NCBI GenBank assembly: GCA_963680875.1
Contig: OY804579.1
Location: 25,157,804-25,221,803, forward strand
DNA from: Bathymodiolus brooksi
Taxonomy: Eukaryota > Mollusca > Bivalvia > Mytilida > Modiolidae
Direction: 5' to 3'
DNA: 64,000 nt
Part shown: one piece after another, positions 13,825 to 54,779 of the stretch
How positions within the stretch are numbered: position 1 is the stretch's first letter
Layout of the letters: the number at the start of each line of letters is the position of its first letter
Notes under the pieces: model-generated
What the model was told of the DNA's origin: nothing
What the model saw: the letters and a program-made list of their open reading frames with translations, nothing else
The model's database searches: none
Position numbers and translations under genes: made by a program

Positions 13825-14576
13825 CAAGATGAACTGTGAGCTAATGCTCATCTATGATACCCCAGCTCTTTGGCAAACAGGAAGTAGGAATCTGACGGGT
13901 CAAAAAACGCTTCTCACGATATGGGGTACCTATATGAAGCTTGTGACCAAATATCAGACTTCTGCCATCAATAGTTGCTGAGAAACATGCGACGAAAAAT
14001 GAGCATATATGTTCAATGTGTAGAAAAATCAACAAAGTCGGCAAACAGGAAGTAGGAATCTGATGGGTCCAAAAACGCTTCCCACGATATGGGGTACCTA
14101 TATGAAGCTTGTGACCAAATATTAGATCTCTGCCATCAATAGTTGCTGAGAAAAATGTGACGAAAAATGTGCATATATGTTCAATGTGTATAGAAACCAA
14201 CTAAGTCGGCAAACAGGAAGTAAGAATCCGATGGGTTCAAAAACGCTTCCCACGATATGGGGTACCTATATGAAGCTTGTGACCAAATATCAGATTTCTG
14301 CCATCAATAGTTGCTGAGAAAAATGTGACGAAAAATGTGCATATATGTTCAATATGTATAAAGACCAACTAAGTCGGCAAACAGGAAGTAGGAATCTGAC
14401 GGGTCCAAAAACGCTACCCACAATATGGTATACCTATATGATGCTTGTGACCAAATATCAGATTTCTGCCATCAACAGTTACTGAGAAAAATGCGACGAA
14501 AAATATCTTGGACGGACGGAAGGACAGACGTAAAACAGTATACCCCCCCTCCCCCTTCGGGGAGTGGGGGTATAAT
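13825..14576 (+). mobile_element. Hairpin-ended cassette, 168-bp core
   Basis: The 5' end reads AACTGTGAGCTAATGCTCA, a small stem, followed by TATGATACCCC. Four tandem monomers follow: GGCAAACAGGAAGTA recurs near 13872, 14040, 14207 and 14375, a period of 167-168. After the array comes a GGACGGACGGA-type tract and a terminal hairpin (TATACCCCCCCTCC...GGAGTGGGGGTATA). No target duplication is visible. These traits (5' block, central tandem repeats, 3' hairpin) match the general layout of HINE-type relatives of Helentrons, which is inference. Its ends match the cassettes at 23359 and 34191 although the core does not. A minus-strand frame at 13841-14200 simply reads the monomers. Confidence 0.7.
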
Positions 14577-14650
14577 TAAAACCAACCTTTATTCAGTGCC
14601 AAGCATCATTGTGTTAAATATTCAGAAGGATCTGTCAACTACAACTTAAG
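14577..14650 (+). repeat. Dispersed repeat R, interrupted copy (right part)
   Basis: AACCAACCTTTATTCAGTGC and ATCATTGTGTT correspond to 4183-4222 in the uninterrupted copy. Confidence 0.6.
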
Positions 14651-15502
14651 TTATTACATGGAAACCATTCTGTACAGGCAGACGACTATGAGAAAGTCAT
14701 AAGTAATATTATATTGCCACACATTTTTATGGTCATTTAGAAAAAATATCAAAATTTGAATTCAAATAAAAATTAAATATATTGGGAGCAGGCCTCATTA
14801 TGGGCCCCTTAAATCTGGGAAACAATGAGACCATACACAGGACTCTACAATTCATACCAGCTCCCACTAGCCTTTGGCTAGTAAGGAAACATTTTGTACT
14901 CTCCAACAAAAGTATGTTACTTCAACTTACTTGCCAGCCAATTTGTACTATATAACTCCAATAATGTTATTAATTCCCTGAATGTGACAGAATCTCTTGA
15001 ACTTGACCCCACTTTTTGTAGGTCTGTGTTGCTACTTGTATTTTTTGTTGTCTTTTTTATTTATTTAAGCTTGTAAATAAAGAAACATAAAATAATTAAA
15101 AGAGTTTAATGTCTTTTTAATCCAAATTTTGAAATAATTCAATTCAATATTTATTGTCATTTAAATCATAAAACAGATTTGTAATAATAAGTCAAAATAT
15201 GTGGGCCTGTCTGTCTGCAAAAATCACAATAAATAAGTTAACGTCTTTACTGGAATCATAAACGACACAAAAACTTTTACTTCCAGATACATTTTTTTTG
15301 CACCTTGGAATTTACGCTTTTTGGCTCTATAATCTACATCAGTATTTTCGATATATATTACCGGTGATGCTGCATCGGGTAGGGCAGTTTCATGATCAGT
15401 TGATAATTTGATTCAACCGATTTATTTTTAGTGTAGAATTTTGTAATAAGGTTTTGTTTTTTGCTCATCGTGGTCACTTGCAAGTGTTAAAAGTATGTGA
15501 TT
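14651..15502. other. No recognised gene
   Basis: AT-rich. The left part of the hAT-like relic ending at 15656 may begin somewhere after 15240 but its border was not found. Confidence 0.4.
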
Positions 15503-15656
15503 TAAAACTTTTATGTCTGAGTCAATTGTGCGGTTTAAAAGACCGGATTATCAAAGATATATAAACTCGGCGTCTGGCTATCAATACAGAATTTTCACTC
15601 GCATTTTACAAAAGTAGCTCGCAAATGTGAGTGTTTTGGTCGCATTGTAGAGCCCT
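15503..15656 (+). repeat. hAT-like relic end, copy 1
   Basis: Blocks AAACTTTTATGTCTGAGTC, GTGCGGTTTAAAAGACCG, GTCTGGCTATCAATACAG, CGCATTTTACAAAAGTAGC and a terminal GGTCGCATTGTAGAGCCCTG recur in the same order and orientation at 19252-19462. The terminal GAGCCCTG equals a hAT-style CAGGGCTC end read inward. No left end or 8-bp duplication was found. Confidence 0.6.
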
Positions 15657-17435
15657 GCATACTAAAAAGAAGGGTTTGGAGATACAGTACAGCTGACAGC
15701 ATACACTGATAAATGCTGAGCATTTAAAAGGCTCAGCATCCAATGCTGAGGTTTTATTGGGGGTAGTAAATCATGGGCTGATGATCAGTTTTATTACCCT
15801 CACATGTACAGGTGGTTAGCAATTGAATAAACTGATCATAATGATTTCCAGGTAGATGTACCTGATTCAATAGGTGTTAGTAAAATTTACCTGAACATGT
15901 ATGTGTGATATGTTACACTTGTGACTTTATTTAGTGGAAATATTTACATAATACATTTTCTATTTTACAATGTAGTAATGTTTTGATAATTCTAAAATTT
16001 AATTAAATTTTCTTTGTTTCTCAAATGATTTGTTTTGTTAAAATTTCAATTATTATCTGTATTTTAAAATTTAAAAGTAAATTATTTGAAAATATTTGAT
16101 TATACAATAGATGTGTATCTATTATTTTTTTAACCATTTGTCTGTTGTCTTTTTTTGTTGTTGCTTGTAAATCTTCATATTTTCTACAATTTGTTTGTCT
16201 TATCAATGTTTTAAATCTTGAAAGTAAACTCTAACTAAACTGTGGATATTAAAAGAATTAAACTTGGTGCACAATCAGAGAATAATATGTTTTAATTACA
16301 TTTATTAAACATTGCATAGAGATTTTTCTCCACATCATGATTAATATATGTAAATATATAGGTGTTAATTGATCAAAGACTTTATTATTCTTTAATATTA
16401 TGGTTTAATTGCATATCACTGGTGATCAAAACTGATCAAAAGTAATTAGCAGTTAATCTATTCTCATTAGCTGTCTTTGATTTTCTTTTTTTCCTTTTTA
16501 TTTTTGTTTGTACTAACAAAAACAGTAAATTATTTAAAAAAATGATTAATTCAAAATTCATCAATATTTATGAAAAAGAAATTTATAGTAATTTTAATTT
16601 TAACCATTCAACATTTCACATTAAAACAAAAAATATATGTATTTAATTTAGGAATCTAGTTGAATATGTGTGGTTTTTTTTCTTTTTCATTAGCCTAGAC
16701 AGTATGTCTCTTTAAGGTCATTTTATTACATGAAAGTGAATAAGTGGCAAATGACAAGTGTCCATAAATCCTTCATTGATTGAGATTTTCTATGTTTACC
16801 ATATTGGTGTGATAATACCCATTCTCTGTAAGGACTTAAATTGACAGGAAATGCATAGTCTCAGAATCCAAATAATGTTATCTATTTTTTTAAAGTGTCA
16901 TAAGAAATGATGGAAAATGTTGCAAAATATTTGTAACAAATGCCAGTTTCCATGGCAACCAGCTCAAATATTCTGAGTCTGAAAAATTGTAAAAAAAATC
17001 ACATCCCTCTAAAAGAAAGTTCAGCTGTTAAAACTATTCTTAATTCAAACACCCACTCTTGTTAAAAACATTTTATATGGTTTATAGGTAAAGAATGGTC
17101 CGAGTGCCAAATGTGTATCTTGTACCAAACATTGGCTATTGTCTGTCAAAATGTGATTATGACAAAGATAGGGACAGGAATAACCTTTTTTTGAATATAA
17201 AAAAAATGAGGTTGCCATGCATATAATTTACTTATACTAAGTTGAATCAATGGTTCCAATAATATAGAACTTTATTCAATAAACAAAATAATGGGACCTT
17301 CTCTTATATGTGATTACTGAGAGTTGGAATTTCCCTATTGAAGCCCTTGTTATGCAGGTAAGGATTATCTCCCTTCCTTAACTCTCCTTTGTGGAATCAA
17401 TTATAGTACATGTAAACAAATTGGGGGGCTAAACT

Positions 17436-17761
17436 CAATCGTAACTACTCGGCAATTCTCGCTACCCTGCAAATAACCTCGTACATACATAGTAGAAATT
17501 CTTCTTAAATTGTTTGCCGGAAGTTAAGTTAAGTTAAGCCGCACAAAAATATAGTCCACAAAAATCCAATATGGAAGACATACTAAGTAAAATCTAATCA
17601 TGCAAAACTAATTAAAACTTTAATTGAAATATAGAAAATTGTTTAAAATATAACTCTATCAAACTTTCATGTAACTGACATGTGAAAAGTAGTGCGATTT
17701 ATACGCCTAATGCATACAAGGTTATTTGCAGGGTAGAGAGAATGGCCGAGTAGTTACGATT
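17436..17761. mobile_element. MITE with 43-bp TIRs and 11-bp TSD
   Basis: The left end AATCGTAACTACTCGGC continues inward through TACCCTGCAAATAACCT, and the right end is the reverse complement with two or three changes. GGGGCTAAACT occurs just outside both ends (17425-17435 and 17762-17772). A 326-bp body with long TIRs and a 9-11-bp duplication is typical of Mutator-like MITEs. No coding capacity. Confidence 0.8.
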
Positions 17762-18025
17762 GGGGCTAAACTAACAACTGAAATGATTTTCCTAAACATC
17801 ACATTTATTAATATTTGTTCACTTTATTTCTTTGTACAACATCTGAATAATTGTAAAAAATAAAGATTTGAAGTTAACTACCTTTCTAAAACCAAGATAT
17901 GGGTTCATTTCCATAGGTTGGTAGACACTTTTTTTTTTTTTGGAAAATTTTTATTTTATGAAAAAAATAACCCAACTGTTTTTTTACCTTTTCTTTTTAT
18001 TAAATATTCAAAAACAACATACCAA

Positions 18026-18108
18026 AAGCATCATTTACATGTTAACATTCAGAAGTTGAAAAAATAAAGCATCATTTACATGTTAACATTCAAAAGTTGA
18101 AAAAATAG
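18026..18108. repeat. 45-bp tandem duplication
   Basis: GCATCATTTACATGTTAAC plus a following AAGTTGAAAAAATA is present twice in direct succession with one or two changes. Confidence 0.85.
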
Positions 18109-19251
18109 GGCATATTTTCAATAGAATTTTTTTTTATGGGTCTTTAAATAGGGGTACACTCATAGTCATACGTTTATCATGAAAAAATACACTAAAATGT
18201 AAAAAAGAACAATACATTATATATTAAAATATACAAAAAATAATTTAATTTGTCATTTTTTATATTGAAAAGAATGTACTTGTAATCAACTGGCATATTT
18301 CTTTTAATGTTTAGAATGTATGTTTAACAAAATAAGAATAAAAATGTGAAAAAAATGTTCTCTCTAAATACACTTATATTTTCATTGATAATCAGTTAAA
18401 GGAATTGAAACTTTTATTATGCATCAATTATAAGGGGGGTTCAAGATGTGTTCCATTTATCTTGAAAATATTAATTTCCTTTATTTTCGAAACATAGTAA
18501 CAAGTATATTTTTGAAAATGGATTACATTTATTTTATCAAATTGATAAAGCAAATTAAATATATTATTCCTCTGCAAAAACAGACAAAATTAATTACAAT
18601 TTTTTTTTTAAATACATGTACATGTATCATTAAAAGAACTATAACATTTTTGTCAAAAAAAAACCCACCACTTTTAAATACATCTACATACATGCACATT
18701 ACATAGAAAGGAAATTCTTAAAATGTTAAATCTAATCTTAATTAATTAATCTATTGAATAAAATAGCATCACAAATAATCTTGTTCTTCTTTCCCATATT
18801 TTCATTTAAAAATCCTTATATCTCCAACACAAAATTATGATTTCATTTCAATTATTTTTTTTAATTATTGGCTGATGCTAATCACAAAATATTAAATTTT
18901 AAAAATATTCTTTTATTGACAAATTTTCAAGGTACAGTTAAATGTATTGAAGTCCTTTTTCTACACATCAAAATCACTGAAGATGAAACACAACAGATGT
19001 ACATGTACATGTATTTACCTGTAGAACACATGTGACTAACCTGTGAAATCAACAAGACACTACTGACCAGGTATTTTATGGCCCTGTTTATTACCTTGGG
19101 GTTAATTAGCAGACCATCAGCGAAAATGCTGAGCCTGGCTCAGCACCCAGATTATGCTCAGCATTTATCAGTGTATGCCGTCAGCTGTACTGTACCAAAG
19201 GGGTCATCAGAATCCATATATCGAAGAAGAACAGACAACACAATGGCCACA

Positions 19252-19462
19252 AGATTTAAAACTTTTATGTCTGAGTCAATTGTGCGGTTTAAAAGACCGA
19301 TTAATTAAAGTCGGAATTTAAATTGAAAAATATGATCGGAGAGGGAACAAAACTTTTACGGATATAAAAACTCGCCGTCTGGCTATCAATACAGAATTTT
19401 TACTCGCATTTTACAAAAGTAGCTTGCAAATGCAAGTGCTTTGGTCGCATTGTTGAGCCCTG
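19252..19462 (+). repeat. hAT-like relic end, copy 2
   Basis: Same blocks and terminal GAGCCCTG as 15503-15656, with about 50 extra bases between the GTTTAAAAGACCG block and the GTCTGGC block. Confidence 0.6.
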
Positions 19463-19659
19463 ATACAAAAATCTGTTAAACTAAATAAAGAGAATTTTAT
19501 AAGGAACATACATGTACATGTACTTAAAAAATTAATCAAGATTTGTTGAAAAATAAACTCATCACATACAAAAACAGACAAGATCCTTATTGACAACTTG
19601 GGGTCTCTTGTTTCTTTTGTGTACATTGTAGTGTACTTCCAAAAAACCAACAAAAAAGT

Positions 19660-19810
19660 TTTAGAGGACCATCCTGTGAAAAATTCCTATCATGTTTGGT
19701 TCCAATTGGCTCAGTGCACGTGGTTTCAGAGAAGATTAAAATGTGAACGCTTAACAGGCACCAAGTGATGACAGTACCTCACATGACACTTTGGTTCAGG
19801 TGAGCTTAAA
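19660..19810 (+). repeat. 3' end of a GAGCCTG-type cassette
   Basis: It contains one monomer remnant (TTTTAGAGGACCATCC, TTTGGTTCCAATTGG, GTTTCAGAGAAG), then GGCACCAAGTGATGAC and CAGGTGAGCTT. The 5' part is missing. Confidence 0.6.
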
Positions 19811-21185
19811 ATTCAGCAATAACACATTCAATGGTTTCAATCAATCTGATCCAATTTTATTTTTTTCATTATTTATTTCATAAATTTCAATAGTGACCTT
19901 TCGTTAGATTTTAACAGCAATCATAAGATGGTGGATATCACATGTTGAGCAGGAATTTTACCATTCTAGAATCTATCAATTCATTTTGAATTTTAGATGG
20001 TTTGGTGTTGTTCAATATTAGTTTTTAATGTCCTGTGTCTGCTTAAAACATGTATACGTCAAATTACTTGTCGTTTTTGTTCAATTGTTCATGGTTAGAT
20101 TGTTTACTTTTTTATTTTGGCTGTTGACTATACTAAGTCATAGTATCTTCCTAGATCATTCTCTTTACTTTTTAATCTCTCTTGTTCACAATTACATCTG
20201 ATGTGTCCTATCATAAGGAGTCCCCTTCATCACAACAATTACCTTTCTCGATCATTTTCATGCATTTACTTCATTTGGAGCCTAGTGATTACTAGTACAT
20301 GTAGTATGCATGGTTTTACTATGTTGAAATACACTACTGGTGCACAGAAAACCAGTAATTTACATGTACATCATAATTCCTTCAAAATGTAAGATTCAAC
20401 AGTCCAAACCAGCCATCTGCATTTATATTAGAGGACAAGGTAAAAATCTCAAATTTCCTATTAGTTCATTATTGTGGAAACGTTTGGCAAAAGAAATAGG
20501 TGACTCAGAATGACATTCTTCCATTTTTTAGAAAAGGTCTGATTTAATTACAAATAAAATTAATTTAGTTGGATCCTCATGTTGAAGAGATGTCAAATTG
20601 TCTTCTTAAAATCATAAGGATTGTCTGCTTCATGGAGAATTAGCATTACCAAAAAGTTCTGATTGAGGACATTCCCAGTCGTGTAGCATGTGTTTTGTTA
20701 TCTGCTGTATGTGCTGGTCTTATAATGTGTGCTGTATTTAAATGCTGTATGTCCATGTCTTCTACCACACTACTCTGATGCCACAATGTTAGTGCTCAAA
20801 GTATGGCTTACAATGTAAAAGTGGATGAAATGAGAAGATGCTAAGATGTTAGATTATGAACAAGCAACTATGAAAGCACTGAAATTAATAATAAAGCCAC
20901 ATGTTTACTGAACACAAATAGATATGACCTTCTAAAGTACCACCTCAACTGCTATTTGAACAAAAGACTACTACAATTGCCAGTCTACAAGCCCTCACAT
21001 TGTGTTAGCAATGAGTTATTTTGTCCACACATACAATTAAGTCCTACTTTAAGTTGGAGTGTCCATGAATATTACAATGTTAATGATAACAAACAATGTA
21101 CTCTCATAAAGTACCTACACAGTAGTACAGTACAGTTCTGGAAAAGGAAGAATAATAGCTGTGACATGGTACAATGTACATAATA
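19811..21185. other. No recognised gene
   Basis: AT-rich sequence. Frames at 20201-20392 and 20956-21183 show no domain, and no exon borders were evident. Confidence 0.4.
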
Positions 21186-21189
21186 AATC

Positions 21190-21233
21190 AAAGTTTCCAG
21201 GTGACTGATTCAGGCTCATGTGAGCCTCTAGTT
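21190..21233 (-). repeat. Solo 5' end of GAGCCTG-type cassette
   Basis: Read on the minus strand it gives AACTAGAGGCTCACATGAGC and then CAGTCACCTGG, the 5' stem block of the family, in opposite orientation to the other copies. Confidence 0.6.
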
Positions 21234-21849
21234 AAAAAAAATATAGAGTCATACAATAATTATGTAGTATATTAGTGTGAATCACTGCGACCTGGTGGTT
21301 ATGCAGAAGTTTTGAAACTTAAAGTTAACTTGGAATTTGAGTCAAGGTGCTCGATACTTGTAAGTATCAAAATATTAACACATTTTTAAGGCTAAAATAG
21401 TATAAGGTTACAGTTCAAATATGCAAGAACAAAACATAAAGCTGTAAAATCTTTAAAATAATCAACTAAACAATGGTGTGATGTTTACTAATAGAAATTT
21501 ATGTATTATTATTGTTGTTCCTGCTGTTGATCTCATTGGATCATAATTTGATTGCTTTTTCATGTTCCATTTTATAGGACTGCAAAAATTTTGCGGTCAT
21601 ATCTTGTTATTGGTCTGTCATTGTTGGCATTTGTCTGTAGACACCATGGTTTCTGTGCAATAACTTTAGTTCTACTTAAACAATTCTTTTAAGATTTTAA
21701 CACATCCTTGACAAAGAATAAAAGTCGCCAAGAGGTCAATTATCACCCACCAGTAATTGTGTCCATATAGACCAACGACAACATACCATAATTTTACCGT
21801 AAAATCATTTTTTTGCCCCATTGAGACTCTTTTTTCTGTGGTGGATTAC

Positions 21850-22030
21850 CGATAAAAAAAAACCATCAATTTTGTAGAGGACCATCCACTGAACATTTTT
21901 ACCAAATTTAGTTTAATTTCATAGAAGATTAAAATGTAAAAGCTTATGGACAAGAATGCCACTGTTGTCAACAGACACAAATTGATGACAATACATGTAC
22001 CTCATCTGATCATATGGGTCAGGATTTTAT
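21850..22030 (+). repeat. 3' end of a GAGCCTG-type cassette
   Basis: It contains TTTTGTAGAGGACCATCC, a shortened monomer, then AATTGATGACAATAC and a degenerate CTCATCTGATC/GGTCAGG end. It stops 30 bases before the TIR element at 22061. Confidence 0.5.
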
Positions 22031-22060
22031 TTAATTGTACTATTGATATCTTGCATACAC

Positions 22061-24780
22061 CACTGGTATTAAACTGATGTTCGTAACTTAAGTTACCTAC
22101 ATCCCAACATGGTGGACATGGAAAATGGTAAATTAGAATATCATTGTTTTCTCTTTGTTTTTAGCTTATTTTCAAATACTGTCATTTCAAATGTATAGAT
22201 ATTTTAACAATTAACTGTAGTGATATGCTTAAATCAACTGTAAATTCTCCTATGTGGCGCAAAACCTACTTTAAGAAATACAAATGATGTAAGTAACTTT
22301 AGAATTATTTTTGAACGATGTTCGTAACTTTCAAATATGATGTTGGTAACTTTAAAGTTTGGTGTTTCTCAAATCATATTTAAAACATTTAAAGAACAAC
22401 GCTTTTGTAATAAATAAAATTTGAAAACAAAGAAAAACATCCTTGAAGTGATAGAGAGGGTAATAGAGGTGGGAGAGATTATATAATGCACGAGAGAGAA
22501 AAAAATACAGAGCGGAGGATGAGAGGGTTATTAATGAGTGAGATGAACGAAAGATGAGGGTATTGGGAGAAGAACACCTTGTACAACGCTTGTTTCCAAT
22601 TAGCAATAATAAACACGTGGCTTTGCGTTTGCTGTAATCTTACAGCGATGGATATCGAGAATGACCAGATAATTAATAGTGCTGAGGCTGATGCGGCAGT
22701 CGATACAACATATGGGGTTGTTTAGTATTATATTGATATTTCTATTTGGTCTTGGACTGTGTGCTCTAGAAGGGTCTTTCATAAACTACGACCTTGCAAT
22801 AGGGCGTTTTGACTTCCGACCTTTGGGTGTTTAGGACCTCCCATGGATGGCGACCTCCGACATCATCATTAAATTCGATTAGGGCCATTCTGGGTCTCAT
22901 ATATAAATTCTAACAAAGTATATTTGTATGTAAATTAACAGTTCTATGTGTAAATATGCTGTGAATTATTATCAAATTAATTGTCCTTTGTGTTTTTTGC
23001 TTATTTTAATAAAAATGGACACACCAGATCAAGTATTTTAAGAATGACACATCTAATTATTTCCCTTTAATGCTGAAATGAAACCAGATTAATTTATTAT
23101 TAATTTGTTAGACTATTGTATTAAATACAGATAAATAAAGATTTATAATACTTTTTAACGAATCTATAATTTGTAAGTATTAAAATTGGATTAATCTATG
23201 GTAAAGCTGTTTTCAAAAAGTTCATTTTTTTTATATCATACCATTTCAAGTTTTACAAATACATATACATTTATAAATATGCATTGAAATTGACAGGATG
23301 TTAGTCTGAACAGTCTTGACGGTATATAAACGAATTAGTTTAATATCAATAGTTTTTATACCCATACCCCCCACAAACAAAGTTTGGGGGGTATACAAGA
23401 ATCACCCGTCCGTCCATGTACCTTGTAAGCGCAACTCCTCCTAAACCGCTTATTGGATTTTTATGAAACTTTACACATTTGTAGTACACTACCTGCAGAT
23501 GTACATGAAGGAATATGGTTGCCGTCCAAAATTCAAAAGGAGAGACAATTCAACTTATACTTTCACGAAAAGGGGGGCATGTACCTTGTAAGTGCAACTC
23601 CTACTGAACTGTTTATTGAATTTTTATGAAACTTTACACAGTTGTAGTACACAACCTGCAGATGTGCATGAAGGAATACCGTTGCTGTCTAAAATTTAGA
23701 AGGGGAGATAATTCAACTTATACTTTCACGAAAAGGGGGGTCGTGTACTTGTGGCGACCCCTAGATGTATGTTCTTGGTTAGTTTATTTTGGAGATGGGA
23801 TGTTGTCTCCTTGCCATAACTCCATATCCGTTCATTTTTCATAGGTAACTTGCTAATATACCTGTATTCCAAAGTTTGAACATCATAGTATTGCAAGCGG
23901 GGGGGTATCACTCAGTGAGGTCACTCACAGTTCTAGTTTAAATCAGGATCGCATTCATGAATTTCCTTCACCCATGTTAAATATAATTATACACATAGAT
24001 TTCCTACAAGTCCCTTATCTATATTCTTGTATACTTTAGTAAATATGTTGCTATAGGTAATATATCTCTACCGACAATATTTATGTAGTACAGATACATT
24101 GCTTTCAGCAGCAAACGTATTAAAGGGGTACGCACAAGATACACATAGGTTAGAAAGGGACTTATTGTAGCAAGTCTATAATTGTTTACATTGACATGAT
24201 TACGATGTTTCATGGATCAACAAGTCTTCAACTGTCAATAAGTCGCATGTGACGCTAAAACAAATCAACATCCTAAAAATGTGAGAAAGGTAGAATACTG
24301 TACATGTATGCGACCCTGAATTGTTTTTCTTCTTAATACTCGTTCTATATGCTTTCGTTTCGTTGCTTGTTGTTCTTTTTACTTTTAAGTTGTCTGCATG
24401 CTTAATTTTGCTTTTAAATTGAAACCAAGAGTTTCTTAACGACAAGCAATTAAGCACCTTCTTATTATTTAACAGTTATGGAAATCTGCAGTTACGGACA
24501 TCCCTTTAAATATCTTTCTAAAGTTACGAACATCACTTCAAAGAGTTACGTACATCCTTCAAATTTTTTCAAGTTAATATTTCAATGCTCTCATAAGAGT
24601 TTCGTCATTTTTATGTATGCATTCGAGTATCTAATATTCCCACCTGTAATCATACCGTTGGACTTACTAATAAGCACTACTGATAAAGAGAAAACAAGGA
24701 TATTCTAATTTACCATTTTCCGTGTCCGCTATGTTGGGATGTAGGTAACTTAAGTTACGAACATCAGTTTAATACCAGTG
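22061..24780 (+). mobile_element. TIR element family X, copy 1 (6-bp TSD)
   Basis: The ends CACTGGTATTAAACTGATG and its reverse complement begin inverted repeats of about 85 bp that include GTTACCTACATCCCAAC and GGAAAATGGTAAATTAG. ATACAC flanks both ends (22055-22060 and 24781-24786). The interior is collinear, in reverse, with the copy at 45080-47354. Subterminal copies of GATGTTNGTAACTTT near 22260-22370 and 24480-24560 may be internal binding-site-like repeats. No transposase was recognised. The copy is interrupted by the hairpin-ended cassette at 23359-23935. A 6-bp duplication is unusual for TIR elements; Polintons make 6-bp duplications but usually start AG, so the class is unassigned. 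Confidence 0.8.
23359..23935 (-). mobile_element. Hairpin-ended cassette in element X copy 1
   Basis: Read on the minus strand it starts CTAGAACTGTGAGTGACC...TCACTGAGTGATACCCCC, carries about three ~162-bp monomers (CTGCAGGTTGTG, GTTTCATAAAAATTC, AGGAGTTGCGCTTAC) and ends in a hairpin (GTATACCCCCCAAAC... GGGGGGTATG). The related element copy at 45080-47354 lacks it: there ACTATTGATATT joins straight to the GATCCTGATTTAA block. The monomer is the same family as at 34191-35964. The frames at 23626-23844 and 23726-23911 are repeat artefacts. Confidence 0.75.
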
Positions 24781-25131: not shown

Positions 25132-25175
25132 CTGTTTATAAAAGATGTGAATTTTTTGAATTTTTTTTTCTAAGA

Positions 25176-25890: not shown

Positions 25891-26092
25891 GGTCTGATGA
25901 ACTAATAACATTCTATATATACAACAATTAAAAGGATATTTATTACATTTTGAATTGGATAAATGTTTAAAAAAAAAAAGGTACAAACTGTAGTTGTTAC
26001 GGTGTACAATGTACACCTATAGATAAACTGGTACATTTTACACCTATATTCTTTCTTTTCAATTGAATGACTTTAACAAAATGTGATCATAC

Positions 26093-26371
26093 CAGTAGTC
26101 CACTTCCATCCTCCACTTCCTCGGTCGTGTAATCCTATCCAAACACCATTATTTCTCCATCGTAAATGATTACCCATCACTCTCCTTAGAAAATCCATTG
26201 TATCTTTGTCTGGTATATGTACCATATCCCCTCCCCATGTCTCGCATTGTGCTCTGGCATCAACCCAAGTTTTCTCATGGTTTATAAATACATAACAAAT
26301 ACTGTTGTGTGTAAATACATATCCAAGACTTTTCAGAGAATCAACGATTGGCTGACAACTGTCTGAATACA
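26093..26371 (-). CDS. C-type lectin domain exon, N-terminal half
   Basis: On the minus strand the acceptor TTTTTTGTTCCAG lies just above 26371 and the donor GTATGA starts at 26092. The 279-bp exon is open and phase 1-1. It encodes a domain start with a leading Cys (DSCQPIV), CYVFINHEKTWVDARAQC, GGDMVHI, then WIGLHDRG and GGWKWTTG. These are the conserved first Cys pair, the beta1-alpha1 Trp and the WIGL signature of C-type lectin domains. The following exon at 24967-25131 supplies the rest. The signal-peptide exon is expected upstream (above 26400) but was not found. Phase 1-1 exons are the shuffled type common for extracellular domains. Likely a secreted lectin, partial here. Confidence 0.9.
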
Positions 26372-26849
26372 CTGGAACAAAAAAGAAATCATTATATTAG
26401 AACTACAAAAAAAATGTATACCTTGTATACATACATGCTATATGAAAAAGAAATGCACACTTGAGCCTACATGTATATTGATCACCTGCAGCTCTTTTCA
26501 CAAAAATGTGTACGATAAATACTTATTTTAGTGTAAAAGAGTTTCACAAAAAAAATTGTTGAAAGTCAGACTCTCTACGACCAAAACGACCCACTCTTAA
26601 GTGTAATATATTTATCATAAGAGTAAAATTTCTCTTAAATCAAAAAAAAATATCATCAACAAATACAAATCTGCATATTTCATGCTTTCGTGTTGATATT
26701 GCTAATGCTGGTAACATTTACACTTTTTTGACAGTTTGAAAACTTGAAAAAGAAAATGAAAGACGAGGAAGGGATTAACCCTCTACCGAAGCAAAAAGGG
26801 TTCATTTTCCAATTATCAAACTGTTTCAACTGTTGTGGAGCAAAAATAG

Positions 26850-26905
26850 AGACTCCTCTAAGGAGCCTGAATCTCTCACCCTTGAGAAGTTTTCAAAGAT
26901 CAGCC
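26850..26905 (+). repeat. Solo 5' end of GAGCCTG-type cassette
   Basis: AGACTCCTCTAAGGAGCCTG is followed by AATCTCTCACCCTTG, then unrelated sequence. Confidence 0.5.
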
Positions 26906-26954
26906 AATATGAAATTTCAATCTGTCATATGTTAACTTATATTTAAGTCATCAT

Positions 26955-27025
26955 ATACAAGGGCATTTCGGTACATGTTGAACATTTCGGCATTTCTGTG
27001 ATTCCGGGGCATTTCGGTAATTCAA
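26955..27025. repeat. CATTTCGG minisatellite
   Basis: GGGCATTTCGGTA, AACATTTCGGC, ATTTCTGTGATTCC and GGGGCATTTCGGTA are degenerate ~15-base units. Confidence 0.65.
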
Positions 27026-27365
27026 AGTGCCCCAACAATGAATGGACAATGGATTCAATTCATATTCCACCTTGGTAACAAACTTTCCTGATATCAGACC
27101 ACTTTGCAACTTTTTTTTTTATGTTTTTTACGTTGCTCCATTTTGACACATAAATACATGTGTCATTCCTTTGATCAAATTAACCCGTTAGTTTACAATC
27201 ATTTGATCAAGTGAAATAATTAATTAACTATCATTACAAATATTAATTATGTATTACACTACAAAGATTAATCAAATTATTTGCTTGTACTATACAGTGA
27301 TGCAACGTATTGTTGTATTTTAAAATATTTTTATCTATAATTTGTAATAAACTTTATTTTTATAA

Positions 27366-27492
27366 TCAGTGCCGATCTGTCGAGCCAAGTGCCGATTTGT
27401 CTATATTATTGAGTGCAGATTAGTCTAAGTGCCGATATGTCCAGGTGCTGATTAGTCTCAGTGCCGATATGTCCAGGTGCCGATTTGTCTTG
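27366..27492. repeat. GTGCCGATNTGTC minisatellite
   Basis: Seven units of about 16-20 bp, such as AGTGCCGATCTGTC, AGTGCCGATATGTCCAGG and TGCTGATTAGTCTC, lie head to tail 40 bases before the Tc1-like element. Confidence 0.8.
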
Positions 27493-28089
27493 TTTATTTT
27501 CAAGTTATTCTTGAGTGAAATACATTTGAATATACAGTCAGTGCTCAAAAGTTTTTCCTCACAATGGTGGCCGATTTTTCTTCCATGATTGTTTGGCACC
27601 GGTAAAATCGAATTTTCTCAATATTGCGGTAACATATTCGGATAATATTTTCAGGGTACTTAGATTATCTGTGTTAGCGGTAGATGATCGCCACGTCGCA
27701 TTTTGCGAATATAACGGTAGTGTGGCGAGGATAATTTGTGTAGCAGTAGCCACACTGGCGAACGAAAAACTGTTAGAGCGTGCATCTTACAACGACCTTT
27801 TATTATGTAGAAGTCAACTTCGAATAAAACGCGTTATAGACAATGATTTGATCGATGTATAATATCCAAAATGATTTTAAAAAGTGGATCAAATTGATTA
27901 CTTCTGGTAGTTTTTTCAGTTGAAATAACATTATCCGGGTCCCATTCCGGAAATAGTTTCGAATTTAGTCACCGACTGACTGGTTTCCTAAATTATGCTT
28001 TATTCTGTCTGTCCTTCTGTCTACGCTTGAATCTAAAACCAGTAAATTATTTCACAACGAGAAGGTCAAGCATGGCAAAGCGCGAATCC

Positions 28090-28988
28090 GGGTCCGTTCG
28101 CCCTGATAATTATAATTATGTAGGGTATTAAAAATAATAGAAAAATAAGTGATATTTGATTGCTTATAAATATTAAATTGAGAAATTTTAAATATGCGGC
28201 ATGCTAAAGTGTACAGTCAATGAACATAGGTATTCGTCACTCGAAATTACGCTATATATTTCATATAACCACATTGTTCAAAAAAATTATTTTGAAGTCA
28301 TTTCTAAACGGGTTTTGATAATTTTTGCACCAGAATAAGCAGCAATATTAAAGATTTTTGTTTATTTTAGAATGATTTTCCGTTAGATTTCCTTTATTTT
28401 CTTATGATTTAAAGACAATTTTTGTTTTTTGTTGTAAAATTTGCTATATACTGTATTTTAATGAAAGTGACAAATACTTATACATGTATATGTCCACAGA
28501 CTGTATGCTTCGATAATGGGCAAAGGTAAACATTTCAGTCCTTGGAATAAGTGAATCAGGTAACGATTAGTGAATCCACCGAGTCCGTAGAAAATGTAGG
28601 ATATTAAAAATAATTGGTATGCTAAAGTGTATGTTTCTATAATGAACAAAGTTAAACGTTTTAGTCCTTGGAATGAATGAAGCAGGTAAAGATGAGTGAA
28701 TCCAGAGTCTGTAGAAAATGTATGTGTCCTTGGAATTAGTAAATCAGATAAAGATGAGTGAATCAAGAGTCTGTAGTTCATTATACTTTATTAAAGTATT
28801 AAAAAAGTAATAAATATAACAAAGATATAGTTTAAACAAACTATTAACATAATGTTCAAGTTACATAACAAAGTTGCATAGTATAGAAGCTGTAATGTTT
28901 TAATTCTGTTGTGCAACATGGTCCAATGGGTTGTTTGGTGGCTTATAAAGACTCGATATAATTTTTAATAATCAGGGCGAACGGACCC
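28090..28988. repeat. Inner inverted repeat pair
   Basis: GGGTCCGTTCGCCCTGAT at 28090 is the exact reverse complement of 28971-28988. The spacing suggests a ~0.9-kb element inside the insert. No flanking duplication was found. Confidence 0.6.
28505..28785. repeat. Diverged tandem repeat
   Basis: Three copies of a block with AGTCCTTGGAAT, GAATCAGGTAA or AGATAAAGATGAGTGAATC and GAGTCTGTAG occur in order, with spacing of ~60-130 bp. The minus-strand frame over it is repeat-derived. Confidence 0.7.
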
Positions 28989-29391
28989 ACTTGTAGGGCA
29001 AACGGACCTGATACCGCCAAGGATCTATTTTATCCTTTTTTGGCAACGCCAACGGCCCCACACAGCAAAACAACAAATTCATACGAATATTGAATGTTCT
29101 GTTTATCTAATGTTCAAAGTTTGTTGTTTATCATGATAATATATGAATTATTATTGTTAGTTAATTAAATAATAAAGTTTTGAACTTTCAACTGTTTTAT
29201 GCTCTTTGTTTATATTTAGTGTGGCTAACTGAAATTGAGTGTGGCTAAAAGAAATTAGTACCCATTAGCCACAATGGCTAATAAAAAAAAAATGTCTACC
29301 GCTAACACAGATTATACCTTTACCGGTAAAATTTTTAATAAAATATAAGAGTTATCTCTCTTTTGCTTACATTCATTGTCTGCAACCAAAG

Positions 29392-30444
29392 ATGTCAGGC
29401 CATGAAAAAAATTTGAGGACCGAGATAAAACAAACCATCGTGTGATTTAAGAATGAAGTCCACAGTGGGAGAAAAATAGGGAAATTGTTGGATATTGAAC
29501 CATCGACCATCAATAAATTTCGGAAGTGCTATAACGAAAGGGGGGATGTTGAAAATAAACATTGGAGCGGGAGACTACGAAAGTGCAATGACCGAACTGA
29601 CAGACATCTTATACGGGTAGTGAAAATCAACCGCAGGAAGAATTTGCAGGACATTACTGCTACTTTAAATGAGGGAACCCCAGTTAAAATAAGTCATTCT
29701 ACTGTCAGGAGACGTTTATCGTTCTTCGGGTATAAAAGAAGGATTGTAAAAAAGAAAATAATTGTTTCAAATGTGAATTGTTTCAAACGAAGGGCATGGT
29801 ACAGGTCAAAGCTACACTGCACGGTTGAAAATTTTTGGAAGGTAATTTTTTCTGATGATACTCAAATTGTGTTAGGGAAATAAAGGTAGTAAGGTGCATG
29901 TATGGCGAAAAGAATGTGAACAGTGGGCTCCATACTGTCTTGGTGAAGGACGAGATCGGCAACCCAGGGAGGTAGCAAGTGTGATGTTTTGGGGTTGTAT
30001 AACTCATGAAGGTGTGGGGACTTTTGTACCAGTTGATGGGACAATAAACTCGGGAAAAATATATACAAATCTTGGACCATAACATGTGGCCTGTCACTGC
30101 AAAACATTTTCCACAAAACCCTTGGATTTTTCAAGATGATAATGCTACCCCCCACCGTTCCAGACTTACCACTCAGTGGAAGCAGGAAAATAATTTACTG
30201 GTAATGACATGGCCAGCACAGAGCCCCGATATTAACATTATTGAAAATTTGTGGAGATACTTAAAAATCAGACTACAAATACGTGCGCATCTCATACGAT
30301 CAATCATCAAAGAAGGACCTCATTGACACTGCCACTTCAATCTGGACATCCATAACTCCAACCTTTGTAAAATCGTTATATTCGTCTATTCCAAAACGAA
30401 TTCGGAATGTGTTGAGAGTGAATGGTGATATAACAAAATATTAA
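29392..30444 (+). pseudogene. Tc1-like (DD34E) transposase pseudogene
   Basis: The reading starts MSGHEKNLR at 29392 and ends ...DITKY at a stop at 30442. It has an N-terminal paired-type helix-turn-helix region (IGKLLDIEPSTINKF), then the catalytic Asp in FSDD (29850 region), Asp in FQDDN (about 30140) and Glu in NIIENLW (about 30245), with 34 residues between the second Asp and Glu. It cuts and reinserts DNA at TA in active relatives. It is broken by an in-frame TGA near 29443 and by shifts near 29880, 30065 and 30290, so the protein cannot be made whole. Upstream it begins ~80 bases after the insert at 27668-29311. Confidence 0.9.
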
Positions 30445-31059
30445 GGTAAGAAAGTTCATGTATTACATTTTTATTGTTAAAAATTAGTTGAATTTTGTTG
30501 AGTTCTGAAATTGTGAAATCGCAGCAGCCATTTTGAGGACAAACTTTTGACAGCAACTAGTAGTGTGTTGGACGAAATTACACTACGAATTTCTACCCAA
30601 TTACTAATGTAATGACATGACTACTGCGACTGTCTGTTGAAAATGACGTAAGCGATCATGTTTGCGATCGATAATTTTGGCAACAAAATCATGATTTACA
30701 AACATTATAATTTAATATTAGAGAGTAAAAAACACGTGAAATTAATACAAATTATATAATATATTTAAATATTACACAACAACACGCCATTTACAGCATT
30801 GTTTGGGCAAACGGTCAGCTTCCTGTTTCTTGTTTACATAATACAATCATTATTTTACTGACGAAATAACTCACCTTTTTCACTTAGTAAAACAATTAAC
30901 ACTAAAATACTTTGTCTTATATCCATTCTACATCAAGTGAACATTAGCTAGCTGTTCGCACAAAAAAGTCTGAATATTGGACAAGATCGGATTTCCCTAT
31001 ATTTTTGTTATACTTATAGTCCATTTCTTGTAAACGTCAGATTGGTCCTACATACATTA

Positions 31060-31119
31060 CATCCGGAACTCCTCGCGACTGAAAGAAAACTTGGGGAAAG
31101 GCGTGAGGAGTTCCGGATG
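31060..31119. repeat. Short hairpin
   Basis: CATCCGGAACTCCTC and GAGGAGTTCCGGATG are exact inverted 15-mers, 30 bases apart. GC-rich against an AT-rich background. Confidence 0.8.
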
Positions 31120-31286
31120 ACATACATTAGGCTTTAAAAAAAACCTGATCACTAGAACGTAGAAGTGAGTGTGTTAACAACAAAGGTTTATCTGAATATT
31201 TAACCTTGACAGATGTCAATTTTTATAGAACATGTTAAACAAGATCGTATTCATGAGGTCATCGCCAAACAGTATATACATAACAG

Positions 31287-31754
31287 CATGTGGACAATTT
31301 AAGTGATTCCGTCTCCGCCATCTTCCCTATATATTTCATATAAAACCACTTATTTTCATAACATTCTCATGAAGTCATTCCTTAGCCGATATTCATGAAA
31401 TTTTCACCTTTAAAAACAGAATTAATTAGAGTTTATTTTATTATCTTCATGTAATTTGCAAGCATCTATGATTCAAACACAAATGTAAATTCTTGACGTC
31501 ACAATTTTATATGATTATATAGTAAGATTTGGTGAAAAAATTAAACTTTGTTTTTAAATCAATTCTTAAGAGAAAGTAGAAATAAAATTATTTGCAAATT
31601 ATACGAATAAGAAACTATATATTTCTGCATTTAATGCTGAAAATTTCATGAAAATCAGATAAGGAATGACTTCATGAGAATGTTATGAAAATAAATGGTT
31701 TTATATGAAATGTATAGGGAAGATGGCGGAAACGGAATCAATTTTGTCCACATG
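31287..31754. mobile_element. Foldback MITE, ~120-bp arms
   Basis: From CATGTGGACAATTT inward (ATTCCGTCTCCGCCATC, TTCCCTATATATTTCAT, CATTCTCATGAAGTCATTCC) the left arm is the reverse complement of 31630-31754. The centre is AT-rich without coding. A related TTTCATATAACCACATT fragment lies near 28258. No target duplication is evident. Confidence 0.8.
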
Positions 31755-32529
31755 TATATATAGGCCTATATAATTAGAGCTGACGAAACTGAAGATGAAA
31801 ACCCACGCAGGTGGGAAAACTAAAAAAATATGTTTTCCTTGACAAATCGGGATAATGTCATTACTCCGACACTCAATACTCCGACAGTCATTACTCCGAC
31901 ACTCAATACTCCGACAGTCATTACTCCGACACTCAATACTCCGACAGTCATTACTCCGACACTTATTACTCCGACAATCATTACTCCGACTCTTAATACT
32001 TCGACAGTGACCGATAGTCTTTGCAATTCTGGCGCTTTTAGCAATCCAAATGCAGTACGGGACTGCCCATTTAACTTGAAAGGGGCATGGTTTTTATCCC
32101 GGAGTCGGAAGTTTTTTTCGTATGCAGCGCTATTGTTTTTAAAGCTTTTCAGCGCGGCCCAACAAAATATTTTTTATAAAAGAAAATATTATTTCATGTA
32201 GATCTAATAAAAATGCTTTCTCTGATTAGTTTGTTTCTTCGATTCCCGTCATATTTTCCTCAAAATTCAGAATAGCACAATTAGAACGCACAATAAAAAA
32301 TGCAAGAAAAATACCTAATCAAAAGGACAACAAAAATACAACACTAGAGAGGCAATTCCTGGTAAACACTCGCTATTACTGACAGCTAGCTACGAACCGT
32401 CGACCGACTGATGTAAAAGAATCATGCATACCAGTACCAGATCAAGGAATGGAATGAAAGGATATATTGTATTTTTGCAATCCTCTTTGTACCATAAACT
32501 GAGGGTCAAGTTTAACATACTGTTAGGTT

Positions 32530-32950
32530 GTACTTCTGCAGGGGACACCAATGGACGGTGCTTAAGGAAATGTAGCATTCTAAAGCCTACACTCCTCCTC
32601 CTATCCAGTGCAGAAGAACAAGCATAACATATGCATAAATAAAGGGAATGTATATACCAAATATAATAGTTAAAAGTTTGCATGTTGTTTTTCTGCAAGG
32701 GACACCAAGGGGCGGTGCTCAAGGAAATGTAGCATTTTAGTGCTTACACTCCTCATCGTGTCCAGTGCAGATGAACAATATGTTATTATCGTGTAGTTTC
32801 AAAATTGAATGAATTGATAAAAATAAATATGAGCTTTCATGTTGTCATTCTGCAAAGGGACACCAAGGGGTGGTACTCAAGAAAATGTAGCATCATAAAG
32901 CGTACACTCCTCCTCGTGTCCAGTGCAGAAGAACAAGATGCAATAGAAAT
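32530..32950. repeat. ~161-bp tandem array, three monomers
   Basis: GGGACACCAANGG, CAAGGAAATGTAGCAT and GTCCAGTGCAGAAGAACAA recur at about 32541, 32699 and 32859. Confidence 0.85.
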
Positions 32951-33336
32951 GTCAGAAAGAAAAAAAAATCATCTACAATATTTACAGATAAATTGACACA
33001 TCTCTTTCAAGACTAAGTCATTTTCGCATGTCATTAACCACAAGAATATCTCTTCTATACTTAAGTTTTGGATGTTGATACATGTCATCCCAACTATACT
33101 AAAAAGGTCTTGCCTAGTTTTATCATATTTTGAACAGGACATTAAAAAATGCATTTCATCCTCAATTTCCCATATTTCAGAGCAATATAGTAAAACATGT
33201 TAAATGGTATGGTCAAAAACATATGTCCTAAGCGACGTCGCTAAGTAAACATTGACGCGCAGGAATACTGAAAACATAGTTCATCTAAATTTTCGACTAT
33301 ATCTTTTATTTTCGTCAATGAAATAAATATAATAAT

Positions 33337-33489
33337 TAATTGCACGTCGTGAATATTGAATATATGATCACTCGTGGCGAAACGCATTCAGATTAAACTC
33401 GTGCGCATAGCAAGTTCCGCACACTCGTTTAATCTGATGCGTTTTGCGGCAGTCGTGATCATATTTTCAATATCCACTCCGTGCAATTA
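33337..33489. repeat. Foldback, ~65-bp arms
   Basis: TAATTGCACG, GAATATTGAATATATGATCA and ATTAAACTCGTG pair with CACGAGT-like, TGATCATATTTTCAATATC and CGTGCAATTA on the right around a centre near 33412. Confidence 0.85.
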
Positions 33490-33783
33490 TCCTATAGTTG
33501 TTTGGAGTTGCGATTAGAAAGGATATGATGATACAACCCGGATGCATGATCGGAGTATTAATGAGTGTCAGAGTAATGACTGTCGGAGTTATGAGTGTCG
33601 GAGAAATAACTGTCGGAGTTATGACTGTCGGAGTAATGACTGTCGAAGTAATGAGACGACCCCGATAAATCTAGACTTTAGAGCTTATCTTATGACCTAG
33701 AGAATTCTTTGAATAATCTCAGTCCGAAAAATTTTCTCGGGCTGAACTTGATACTCAGTAAACTTGGGTACCTATAAAGTGCG

Positions 33784-33955
33784 AAACGAAATAGAAACAA
33801 AACGACATGAAACGAAACAAAACGAAACGAATTGAACGAATACAAAACGAAACGAAACTAAACGAAATGAACGAATTAAACCAAAACGAAATAAAACGAA
33901 ACCAACGATAGCAAAACGAAATCAAAGAAAACAAAACGAAAATGGAAGAAAAAAT
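33784..33955. repeat. CGAAA-rich simple repeat
   Basis: Imperfect AAACGAAAC / AAAACGAAATGAACG units. The complementary-strand equivalent (TTTCGTTTTG) occurs at 41896-42045. Confidence 0.85.
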
Positions 33956-34190
33956 CTAAAAGAAATCCAGCCTATGTTCACAATTACGATGCTAGACTAC
34001 TTCCCACGCTGTGCCACACATGTCTGTCTTTCATCATGAGAGGACAGGATTTGATCACCATTGAACAAGAATACTATGCGTTTATTCAGTAGGAGTCTGT
34101 CCTTTTGACTTGGTGGCTTTTTTTTAATTTAGGAACCATAAGAGGAACGTCGTCTTTTCTTTTTTTTTTAAAGGAGAGGAATTAAAATAA

Positions 34191-35964
34191 ACTAGAACTG
34201 TGAGTGACCTCACTGAGTGATACCCCCAGCTTGCAATACTATGATGTTCAAACCGTTTGGAATACAGGTATATTAGCAAGTTACCTATGAAAAAAGAACG
34301 GATATGGAGTAATGTCAAGGAGACAACATCCCATCTCCTAAATAAACTAACCAAGAACATGCATCTAGGGGTTGCCACAAGGTCTTCAACAAAGTGGGAT
34401 TGTTTAAAACCAATACGGTTTCATCAGTATACATGAGGATTACAACATTTCCTAACTTTTGTACAAGAGGATATAGGTCACATCAAATGTTATTGATTCA
34501 AAATTAATTATTTATTCTTGAGTAGTTTTTATATTGCAAATATCCAGATGTGAAAAGGTCAATTAAAATCTTATTTCATTCAGGAATAGTTACTCTTACA
34601 TCACCTTCCAAATGTTTGACAGGAACCATATTCCTTCATGCACATCTGCAGGCAGTGTACGTATTACAACTGTGTAAAGTTTCATTTAAATCCAATGAGC
34701 CGTTTAGTTACAAGCCCATCTCTCCATACAGAACGTATTTCAAAGTATAAGTTAAATTATCCCCCCTTCCAAATTTTGGACAGCAACCATATTCCTTCAT
34801 GCATATCTGCAGGTAGTGTATTACAACTGTGTAAAGTTTCATAAAAATCCAATAAGTTGTTTAGGAGGAGTTGCGCTTACAAGGTACATGCCCTCCTTCT
34901 TTTCGTGAAAGTACAAGTTGAATTATCTCCCCTTCCAAATTTTGGACAGCGACCATATTTCTTCATGCACATCTGCAGGTAGTGTACTACAACTGTGTAA
35001 AGTTTCACAAAAATCCAATAAGCCGTTTAGGAGGAGTTGCGCTTACAAGGTACATGACCCCCCTTTTCGTGAAAGTATAAGATGAATTATCTCCCCTTCT
35101 AAATTTTAGACAGCAACGGTATTCCTTCATGCACATCTGCAGGTTGTGTACTACAACTGTGTAAAGTTTCATAAAAATTCAATAAGCAGTTTAGTAGGAG
35201 TTGCGCTTACAAGGTACATGCCCCCCCCCCTTTCGTGAAAGTATAAGTTGAATTATCTCCCCTTTTAAATTTTGGACAGCAACCTTATTCCTTCATGCAC
35301 ATCTGCAGGTAGTGTACTACAAATGTGTAAAGTTTCATAAAAATCCAATAAGCCGTTTAGGAGGAGTTGCGCTTACAAGGTAAATGCCCCCCCCCCCTTT
35401 CGTGAAAGTATAAGTTGAATTATCTCGCCTTTTAAATTTTGGACAGCAACCATATTTCTTCATGCACATCTGCAGGTAGTGTACTACAAATGTGTAAAGT
35501 TTCATAAAAATCCAATTAGTCATTTAAGAGGAGTTGCGCTTATAAGGTACATGCCCCCCCCCCCTTTTCGTGAGAGTATAAGTCGAATTATCTCGCCTTT
35601 TAAATTTTGGACAGCAACCATATTCCTTCATGCACATCTGCAGGTAGTGTACTACAGATGTGTAAAGTTTCATAAAAATCCAATATGTCGCTTAGGAGGA
35701 GTTGCGCTTACAAGGTACATGCCCCCCCCCCTTTTCGTGAAAGTATAAGTTGAATTATCTCGCCTTTTAAATTTTGGACAGCAACCATATTCCTTCATGC
35801 ACATCTGCAGGTAGTGTACTACAAATGTGTAAAGTTTCATAAAGATCCAATAAGTTGTTTAGGAGGAGTTGCGCTTACAAGGCACATGGATGGATGGACG
35901 GACGGACGGACGGACGGAAAGGGTGATTCCTATATACCCCCAAACTTTGTTTGCGGAGGGTATA
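34191..35964 (+). mobile_element. Hairpin-ended cassette, 166-bp core
   Basis: The 5' end is CTAGAACTGTGAGTGACC...CACTGAGTGATACCCCC. The core from about 34600 to 35890 has seven to eight monomers: GCGCTTACAAGGTACATG recurs at ~34875, 35041, 35205, 35372, 35538, 35707 and 35875. Runs of 9-13 C occupy the same place in several monomers. The core ends in GGATGGATGGACGGACGG, and the terminal hairpin is TATACCCCCAAAC...GCGGAGGGTATA. It has the same ends as the cassettes at 13825 and 23359, and the same core as the latter. The frames 34550-34844 and 35479-36092 are repeat translations. Confidence 0.75.
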
Positions 35965-35984
35965 AAAAGAAGTGTAGTAGTCAA

Positions 35985-36122
35985 AATTCACTAATAGATA
36001 CCCTCGTCCGAGCAAAATTAAAAAGTGTGTCGGAGAGACGAAAAAGTGACGACCGGACGGACAAACGAACGAACGGACAACAGAAACCCTAAATACCCCA
36101 TCTTTTTTTTGGCGGGGTATAA
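35985..36122 (+). repeat. 3' end of another hairpin-ended cassette
   Basis: ATACCCTCGTCCGAGC, GACGACCGGACGGAC and a hairpin TACCCCATC...GGCGGGGTATA follow directly after the cassette ending at 35964. No core is left. Confidence 0.6.
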
Positions 36123-53735: not shown

Positions 53736-53736
53736 A

Positions 53737-54777: not shown

Positions 54778-54779
54778 TA

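What the first reader, a model, noticed from the sequence alone, without database searches (positions are those of the whole stretch)
13825..36122. Cassettes with the same ends but swapped tandem cores
Seen: cassettes at 13825-14576 and 34191-35964 (plus) and 23359-23935 (minus) share a 5' block AACTGTGAG...CTCA...TGATACCCC, a GGACGGAC tract and a TATACCCCC...GGGGGTATA hairpin at the 3' end. The core at 13825 is unrelated to that of the other two. Solo ends of the same type lie at 35985 and 36277. Known: HINE/Helentron relatives and bivalve pearl elements combine central tandem repeats with a terminal hairpin. Inference: one mobilising machinery recognises the ends and tolerates capture or replacement of the satellite core, making this a satellite-dispersing system.
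Basis: partly seen in the sequence, partly recalled or inferred. Interest (0 to 1): 0.75.

Follow-up and report, generated by a model that had tools for sequence, protein, structure and literature searches.

The report
Satellite-carrying Helentron relatives in a bivalve
These cassettes are small, non-coding jumping elements of a kind already described in oysters that carry short satellite-DNA arrays between conserved ends; each end subtype examined stayed with its own satellite, so they look like sister families, not one element freely swapping its cargo.

Summary
The cassettes are real. A (13824-14574), B (34191-35964) and C (23357-23937, opposite strand) share a palindromic end with ATACCCC, GGAC tracts and a TATACCCC/GGGGTATA hairpin. 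B and C are one family and A another, with unrelated cores. The window holds a paralogous empty site for C and one for an A copy elsewhere; both fit insertion between two T's, though a 2-bp duplication is not excluded. The end pattern occurs 3357 times in the 2.0-Gb genome against 0 for its reversed control. In the first 50 listed sites (37 independent by flank) end subtype predicted core 50 of 50 times, so free core exchange is not supported; some unusual A-end copies could not be read. A third family (D, one copy read) has the end with a third core. Shared ends with different arrays, and satellite dispersal by such elements, are already published for Crassostrea gigas. Helitron-type Rep matches exist (119), but none lies within 180 kb of the 113 end sites compared, a small part of all. 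Ordinary; new members of a known kind.

The parts
13824..14574 (-). Family A copy, whole element (strand given in HINE orientation)
   Evidence: flanks ...A|ACAAGATG and TATA|A; the boundary A's could belong to either side
13837..13850 (-). A: 3'-end palindrome TGAGC-TAAT-GCTCA
   Evidence: DNA fold, z -2.07
13855..13863 (-). A: 3' subterminal inverted repeat (TGATACCCC as read on +)
13872..14504 (.). A core: 168-bp tandem repeat, 3.8 copies
14511..14530 (-). A: GGAC/GTCC microsatellite
14539..14574 (-). A: 5' subTIR plus complementary IR forming the TATACCCC hairpin
   Evidence: z -3.98, 0 of 200 shuffles fold as well
34191..35964 (-). Family B copy, whole element
34200..34213 (-). B: 3'-end palindrome GTGAG-TGAC-CTCAC
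   Evidence: z -2.24
34218..34226 (-). B: 3' subterminal inverted repeat
34742..35888 (.). B core: 167-bp tandem repeat, 6.9 copies
35897..35920 (-). B: GGAC/GTCC microsatellite
35933..35964 (-). B: 5' subTIR/IR hairpin
   Evidence: z -2.51
23357..23937 (+). Family B copy (cassette C), whole element, inserted in a dispersed repeat
23415..23752 (.). C core: about 163-bp tandem repeat, 2.1 copies, same as the B core
46158..46159 (.). Paralogous empty site of cassette C: flanks 94% and 96% identical over the two pieces that meet here, without the cassette (run of six A's)
6760..6778 (.). Paralogous empty site of an A-family copy held in locus L036 (flanks 88% over 141 bp and 92% over 48 bp); position to within a few bases
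36272..36308 (+). Solo 5'-type end (subTIR/IR hairpin followed by a GTCC-like tract)
   Evidence: z -3.64
36093..36121 (-). Possible 5'-type hairpin of a core-less remnant; left partner near 35998-36004 not convincing
   Evidence: z -1.31

Best explanation
The cassettes are copies of two related families (A; B = B and C) of non-autonomous Helentrons (HINE, 'pearl' type). In transposon orientation each runs: T-rich target, 5' subTIR TATACCCC, its complementary IR (the hairpin), GTCC microsatellite, satellite array, 3' subTIR GGGGTATCA, 3' palindrome, CTAGT or CTTGT, T. Mechanism (inferred): a Rep/helicase/endonuclease made elsewhere in the genome nicks at the T-rich 5' boundary, peels off one strand by rolling-circle replication, stops at the 3' palindrome and inserts between two T's. 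The array is passive cargo whose unit number drifts. Related ends with unrelated cores reflect rare past replacement of the interior; afterwards each end-core pair spread as its own family. Shown: anatomy, high copy number, insertion at a TT step, strict pairing in the sample. Inferred: the helper, the rolling-circle step, absence of a duplication, the past core replacement.
For: Layout matches the published HINE order of 5' subTIR, IR, microsatellite, tandem array, 3' subTIR and palindrome (PMC7492417). Empty site of C: empty TTT-AAAAAA-CTATTG, filled TTTAAA|CTAG...GGGTAT|AAAAACTATTG. Empty site of an A copy (L036): AAACAATCATGG against AAACAA|CAAGATG...GGTAT|AATCATGG. Both gain two A's (T's on the other strand), as expected for A^A (T^T) insertion of an element with an A at each end. 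3357 exact end matches against 0 control; 2236 first-look candidates for cassette C, of which the tool scored 40, all 40 at 95-100% identity, the window's own copy included. End subtype predicts core 50 of 50. A, B and D share only end motifs beyond short chance matches. The genome holds 119 Helitron_like_N matches, some of them fragments, nine in open frames over 1400 aa. Near one of these (C12, about 103.01 Mb) fetched pieces on the same strand match PIF1 helicase and, below the cut-off, an endonuclease family.
Against: No autonomous element with these ends was found. Two A's gained at each empty site also fit a 2-bp AA duplication. A third, diverged empty site (L028) was ambiguous. The planned genome-wide counts of end by core did not complete.
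Confidence: 0.88

Rival explanations
1. A modular satellite-dispersing system: one active machinery recognises the ends and cores are swapped or captured continually.
For: Three families (A, B, and D from one copy read) share the end motif and have unrelated cores. PMC7492417 group 2 describes related flanks with unrelated arrays; PMC8268682 describes end boxes shared by several elements; PMC12628747 (passages) reports different arrays within one element and the same array in different elements. Some A ends with unusual neighbours remain unread.
Against: 50 of 50 sampled sites (37 independent) show strict subtype-core pairing, and the 22 of 50 hairpins whose loop was recognised also follow the end subtype. 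Strict end plus a neighbour that excludes the usual A and B sequence (NNNRR): 11 of 3357, of which 9 are A-type and 2 B-type ends; 7 of the 11 can be read as an 8-nt deletion in A (inferred). Apparent double arrays in L053 and L054 look like a neighbouring and a nested insertion.
Confidence: 0.08
2. MITE-like DNA transposons with foldback ends, or plain satellite arrays whose edges converge by chance.
For: Short non-coding elements with inverted repeats; pearl-type elements and DTC84 are called MITEs in PMC5139131 (passages).
Against: Subterminal, not terminal, inverted repeats; the two clean empty sites leave room for at most a 2-bp duplication; the same boundaries recur in many copies.
Confidence: 0.04
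3. The copies spread mainly by segmental duplication rather than transposition.
For: Several C1 copies ride in an 18.3-kb tandem repeat unit (units mostly 98-99.9% identical); 13 of the 50 sampled sites repeat a flank already seen.
Against: 37 of 50 sampled sites have distinct flanks, and empty sites exist.
Confidence: 0.03

Closest known systems
Cg_HINE elements of Crassostrea gigas (PMC7492417; abstract, Results and first part of Discussion read), especially group 2 (Cg_HINE_3 and _6)
   Same: 5' subTIR + IR + microsatellite (GTCY/GTCC/GTCK in several) + satellite-like array, mostly 140-180 bp + 3' subTIR + palindrome; TT insertion preferred, no TSD found; consistent array-to-flank pairing; related flanks with unrelated arrays; insertion into other repeats; no autonomous partner linked
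   Different: Another genome and other cores; consensus sequences could not be compared because figures and supplements were not held
C. gigas Helitron-N elements with shared terminal Boxes 4/5 (PMC8268682, passages read)
   Same: Several elements, matched by satellite DNAs, share one pair of end boxes
   Different: Sequence relation to A, B or D not tested
DINE-1 / HINE of Drosophila and mites (PMC4067079, passages read)
   Same: subTIRs, palindromes, central repeats, preference for TT, no target modification found
   Different: There autonomous Helentrons with matching ends were identified; here none was found
pearl elements CvA/CvE/CvG, DTC84 and MgE of bivalves (seen only as cited in PMC7492417, PMC5139131 and PMC11136912)
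   Same: Bivalve elements with central tandem repeats, about 160 bp in pearl
   Different: Original papers not read; no sequence comparison made

Membership tests
HINE (non-autonomous Helentron) | Subterminal inverted repeats at both ends | tested here: met
   TATACCCC at one end, TGATACCCC (reverse complement GGGGTATCA) at the other
HINE (non-autonomous Helentron) | IR complementary to the 5' subTIR, then a microsatellite | tested here: met
   Hairpins fold (z -3.98 for A, -2.51 for B); GGAC/GTCC tract next to them
HINE (non-autonomous Helentron) | Palindrome near the 3' end | tested here: met
   z -2.07 for A and -2.24 for B; also seen in D
HINE (non-autonomous Helentron) | Insertion at TT without target-site modification | tested here: inconclusive
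   Two clean empty sites fit T^T without duplication, but a 2-bp TT duplication cannot be excluded; a third site is ambiguous
HINE (non-autonomous Helentron) | Autonomous Helentron partner with the same ends | tested here: inconclusive
   119 Helitron_like_N matches; the nearest of 113 end sites compared is 183 kb away; about 3200 other end sites not compared; partial flanks of two candidates lack the end
Cg_HINE group 2 (same family by sequence) | Sequence identity of flanks with Cg_HINE_3/_6 | not testable with these tools
   Consensus sequences are in a figure and supplements that are not held
Canonical Helitron (features recalled) | 5'-TC...CTRR-3' between A and T | tested here: not met
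   Both clean empty sites lie between two A's (T's), and the 5' end is TATACCCC; B does end in CTAG followed by T

The most novel reading that the evidence does not exclude
The recognised signal is only about 30 nt (ACTGTGAG, palindrome, ATACCCC), kept across at least three families whose interiors share nothing else, and the families are orphans: a 2-Gb genome with thousands of copies may hold no autonomous element with these ends, so they were driven by a Helentron with diverged ends or by one that is now lost.
Probability: 0.25. Interest if true: 0.4.

Novelty: new member of a known kind. Interest (0 to 1): 0.22.

Why it matters
It extends the oyster picture (Helentron derivatives as dispersers of satellite arrays) to another, probably bivalve, genome of 2.0 Gb. 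It suggests that the end-core association is conserved rather than modular on short time scales: cores turn over between families, not within one. The open question, also left open in PMC7492417, is which autonomous element moves them; this genome, with thousands of copies and long Rep and helicase frames, is a good place to ask.

Tried and rejected
Autonomous partner: the PF14214 scan gave 119 matches. I intersected their positions with 113 end sites (100 listed of the 173, and the 13); the nearest is 183 kb away. The 100 sites listed all lie on C1 below 48.7 Mb, far from the five C1 Rep matches at 68-99 Mb. About 3200 other strict-end positions are not listed by the tool and were not compared. 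Partial flanks of one Helentron-like locus (C12, about 103.01 Mb: 2.2 kb upstream, 1.6 kb downstream) hold no A/B-type end (motif scan; the last stretch read by eye). Nor does a stretch beside another Rep match (C3, 103.94 Mb), about 3.4 kb beyond an open frame that I take to be its continuation though Pfam found nothing in it. Their true ends may lie outside what was fetched.

At C12 I first noted an intact 1839-aa Rep-helicase-endonuclease frame. On checking, the Rep frame and the PIF1 frame are in different frames of the same strand, with about 2.5 kb between the fetched pieces not read; so no intact single protein is claimed.

18.3-kb spacing of end hits on C1: at first suspected to be a large autonomous element; it is a tandem segmental repeat in which the cassettes ride.

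L053 and L054, apparent double cores: an adjacent third family (D) and a nested insertion of another element.

Empty-site search: of the candidates printed, L001 is cassette C itself, L067 matched its own flank and was dropped, L028 (two candidate sites, 77-87% identity) is ambiguous, L036 is clean.

Rfam: no match in the window. Genome-wide counts of end by core (patterns): not completed.

Full report
Observation. The three cassettes exist. Cassette A (13824-14574) holds a 168-bp repeat, 3.8 copies. Cassette B (34191-35964) holds a 167-bp repeat, 6.9 copies. Cassette C (23357-23937, opposite strand) holds a 163-bp repeat, 2.1 copies. B and C share both ends, the stretch next to the left end and the core, so they are one family, though B is longer. 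A and B share a left block (GAACTGTGAG, then CTCA, then TGATACCCC) that 0 of 2000 dinucleotide shuffles match; A against C is matched by 1 of 2000. The right ends of A and B align beyond shuffles only in the GGAC tract (0 of 2000; A against C 42 of 2000), and the A and B cores are no more alike than shuffles. A blastn-short comparison of A, B and a third family D shows the end motifs and a few short chance-level matches in common.

Orientation. The published order for C. gigas HINEs is 5' subTIR, complementary IR, microsatellite (often GTCY), tandem array, 3' subTIR, palindrome (PMC7492417; abstract, Results and first part of the Discussion read).

Empty sites. The flanks of cassette C are a dispersed repeat with a paralogue at about 45080-47158 on the other strand that lacks the cassette; the two pieces that meet at the site are 94% (1008 bp) and 96% (504 bp) identical. 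The empty site reads GATTT-AAAAAA-CTATTG; the filled site keeps three A's on one side and five on the other. A second empty site, for the A copy in locus L036, lies in the window near 6760 (88% over 141 bp, 92% over 48 bp) and reads AAACAATCATGG; the filled site has AA on both sides. Both gain two A's, as expected for insertion between two T's (other strand) by an element with an A at each end and no duplication; a 2-bp duplication is the alternative. A third site (L028) is 77-87% identical and ambiguous. A fourth candidate (L067) matched its own flank and was set aside.

Genome-wide. The window lies in a 2.0-Gb, 136-contig assembly. No tool named the species; a bivalve is inferred from the repeat types. 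The end pattern has 3357 exact matches, and 0 for the reversed control. The first 50 listed sites were read, 30 as loci and 20 as stretches: 34 A-subtype ends all on A cores, 16 B-subtype ends all on B cores (at least one core unit by blastn); 37 sites are independent by flank (29 A, 8 B). Hairpin loops were recognised in 22 of the 50, with loop patterns chosen by me from copies seen, and followed the end subtype in all 22. These 50 are the first on one chromosome, not a random draw. Requiring a neighbour that excludes the usual A and B sequence leaves 11 of 3357. A looser end with an RR neighbour gives 13, two of them D-type, and with a YR neighbour 173. Of the 76 rows shown with letters, 26 are D-type ends, 26 are A ends followed by TGCCA (probably a 7-nt deletion of A, not read), 6 are A ends followed by GCATA (unread), and the rest are other variants, two of them a further end type (CATAG...AAATGGATACCCC). 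So exchange within a subtype was not seen, but it is not excluded.

Divergence. Over the first 190 bp, 30 flank-distinct A copies differ by a mean of 0.078 and 10 B copies by 0.166 (median 0.074); copies came from the loci held then except L039-L050, and from the window.

Helper. The genome has 119 Helitron_like_N matches, some of them fragments, nine in open frames over 1400 aa. Around one (C12, about 103.01 Mb, Rep frame 1839 aa) a 983-aa piece of that frame matches DUF6570 and Herpes_teg_N, and a 731-aa frame about 2.5 kb further on the same strand matches PIF1 helicase (E 2.3e-21) and, below the curated cut-off, an endonuclease family (E 9.4e-4). The two are in different frames, and the stretch between was not read; this is Helentron-like coding content, not proof of an intact protein. 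Its partly fetched flanks carry no A/B-type end. No Rep match lies within 180 kb of the 113 end sites compared. The helper remains unidentified, as it did in C. gigas (PMC7492417).

Known or new. PMC7492417 describes 11 Cg_HINEs, including a group with related flanks and unrelated arrays, and states that each array cluster pairs consistently with its flanks. PMC8268682 (passages) describes end boxes shared by several satellite-related elements. PMC12628747 (review, passages) reports different arrays within one element and the same array in different elements. The finding is therefore a new set of members of a known kind, with window-internal empty sites and a sampled pairing test as its own contribution.

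Noticed in passing
274, 2496, 9993, 21232 (minus), 25181, 48045: Starts of another repeat family (E): (A)AC.[AG]GA[AG]GCTC..GAGCCTGT...TCACC. After 2496, 9993 and 48045 tandem arrays of about 295, 166 and 155 bp follow, with a GACGGACG..AGTGATGG tail; the 48045 copy ends in an AGCTCAC..GTGAGCT hairpin at 49307. Same HINE-like layout with other end sequences.
   Followed up: partly
L053, about 779-1372 in the orientation: A third family (D) with end ACTAGTATTACTGTGAGCACAGCTCACTAAGATATACCCCC, a 161-bp core and its own hairpin loop, next to an A copy.
   Followed up: partly
G000 C1:2.03-2.09 Mb, 3.33-3.35 Mb, 4.71-4.75 Mb: An 18.3-kb segmental unit repeated in tandem and elsewhere on C1 (mostly 95-99.9% identity), carrying A- and B-family copies as passengers.
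   Followed up: partly
51555-56062: Open frames resembling a LINE-type retrotransposon (endonuclease and reverse transcriptase motifs by eye; no family search run).
   Followed up: no
7854-9275: Tandem array with a 52-bp unit, 27.7 copies, higher-order periods of 155 and 207 bp.
   Followed up: no
31857-32006 and 33559-33654: 15-bp unit arrays (CTCAATACTCCGACA type) in inverted orientation 1.55 kb apart.
   Followed up: no
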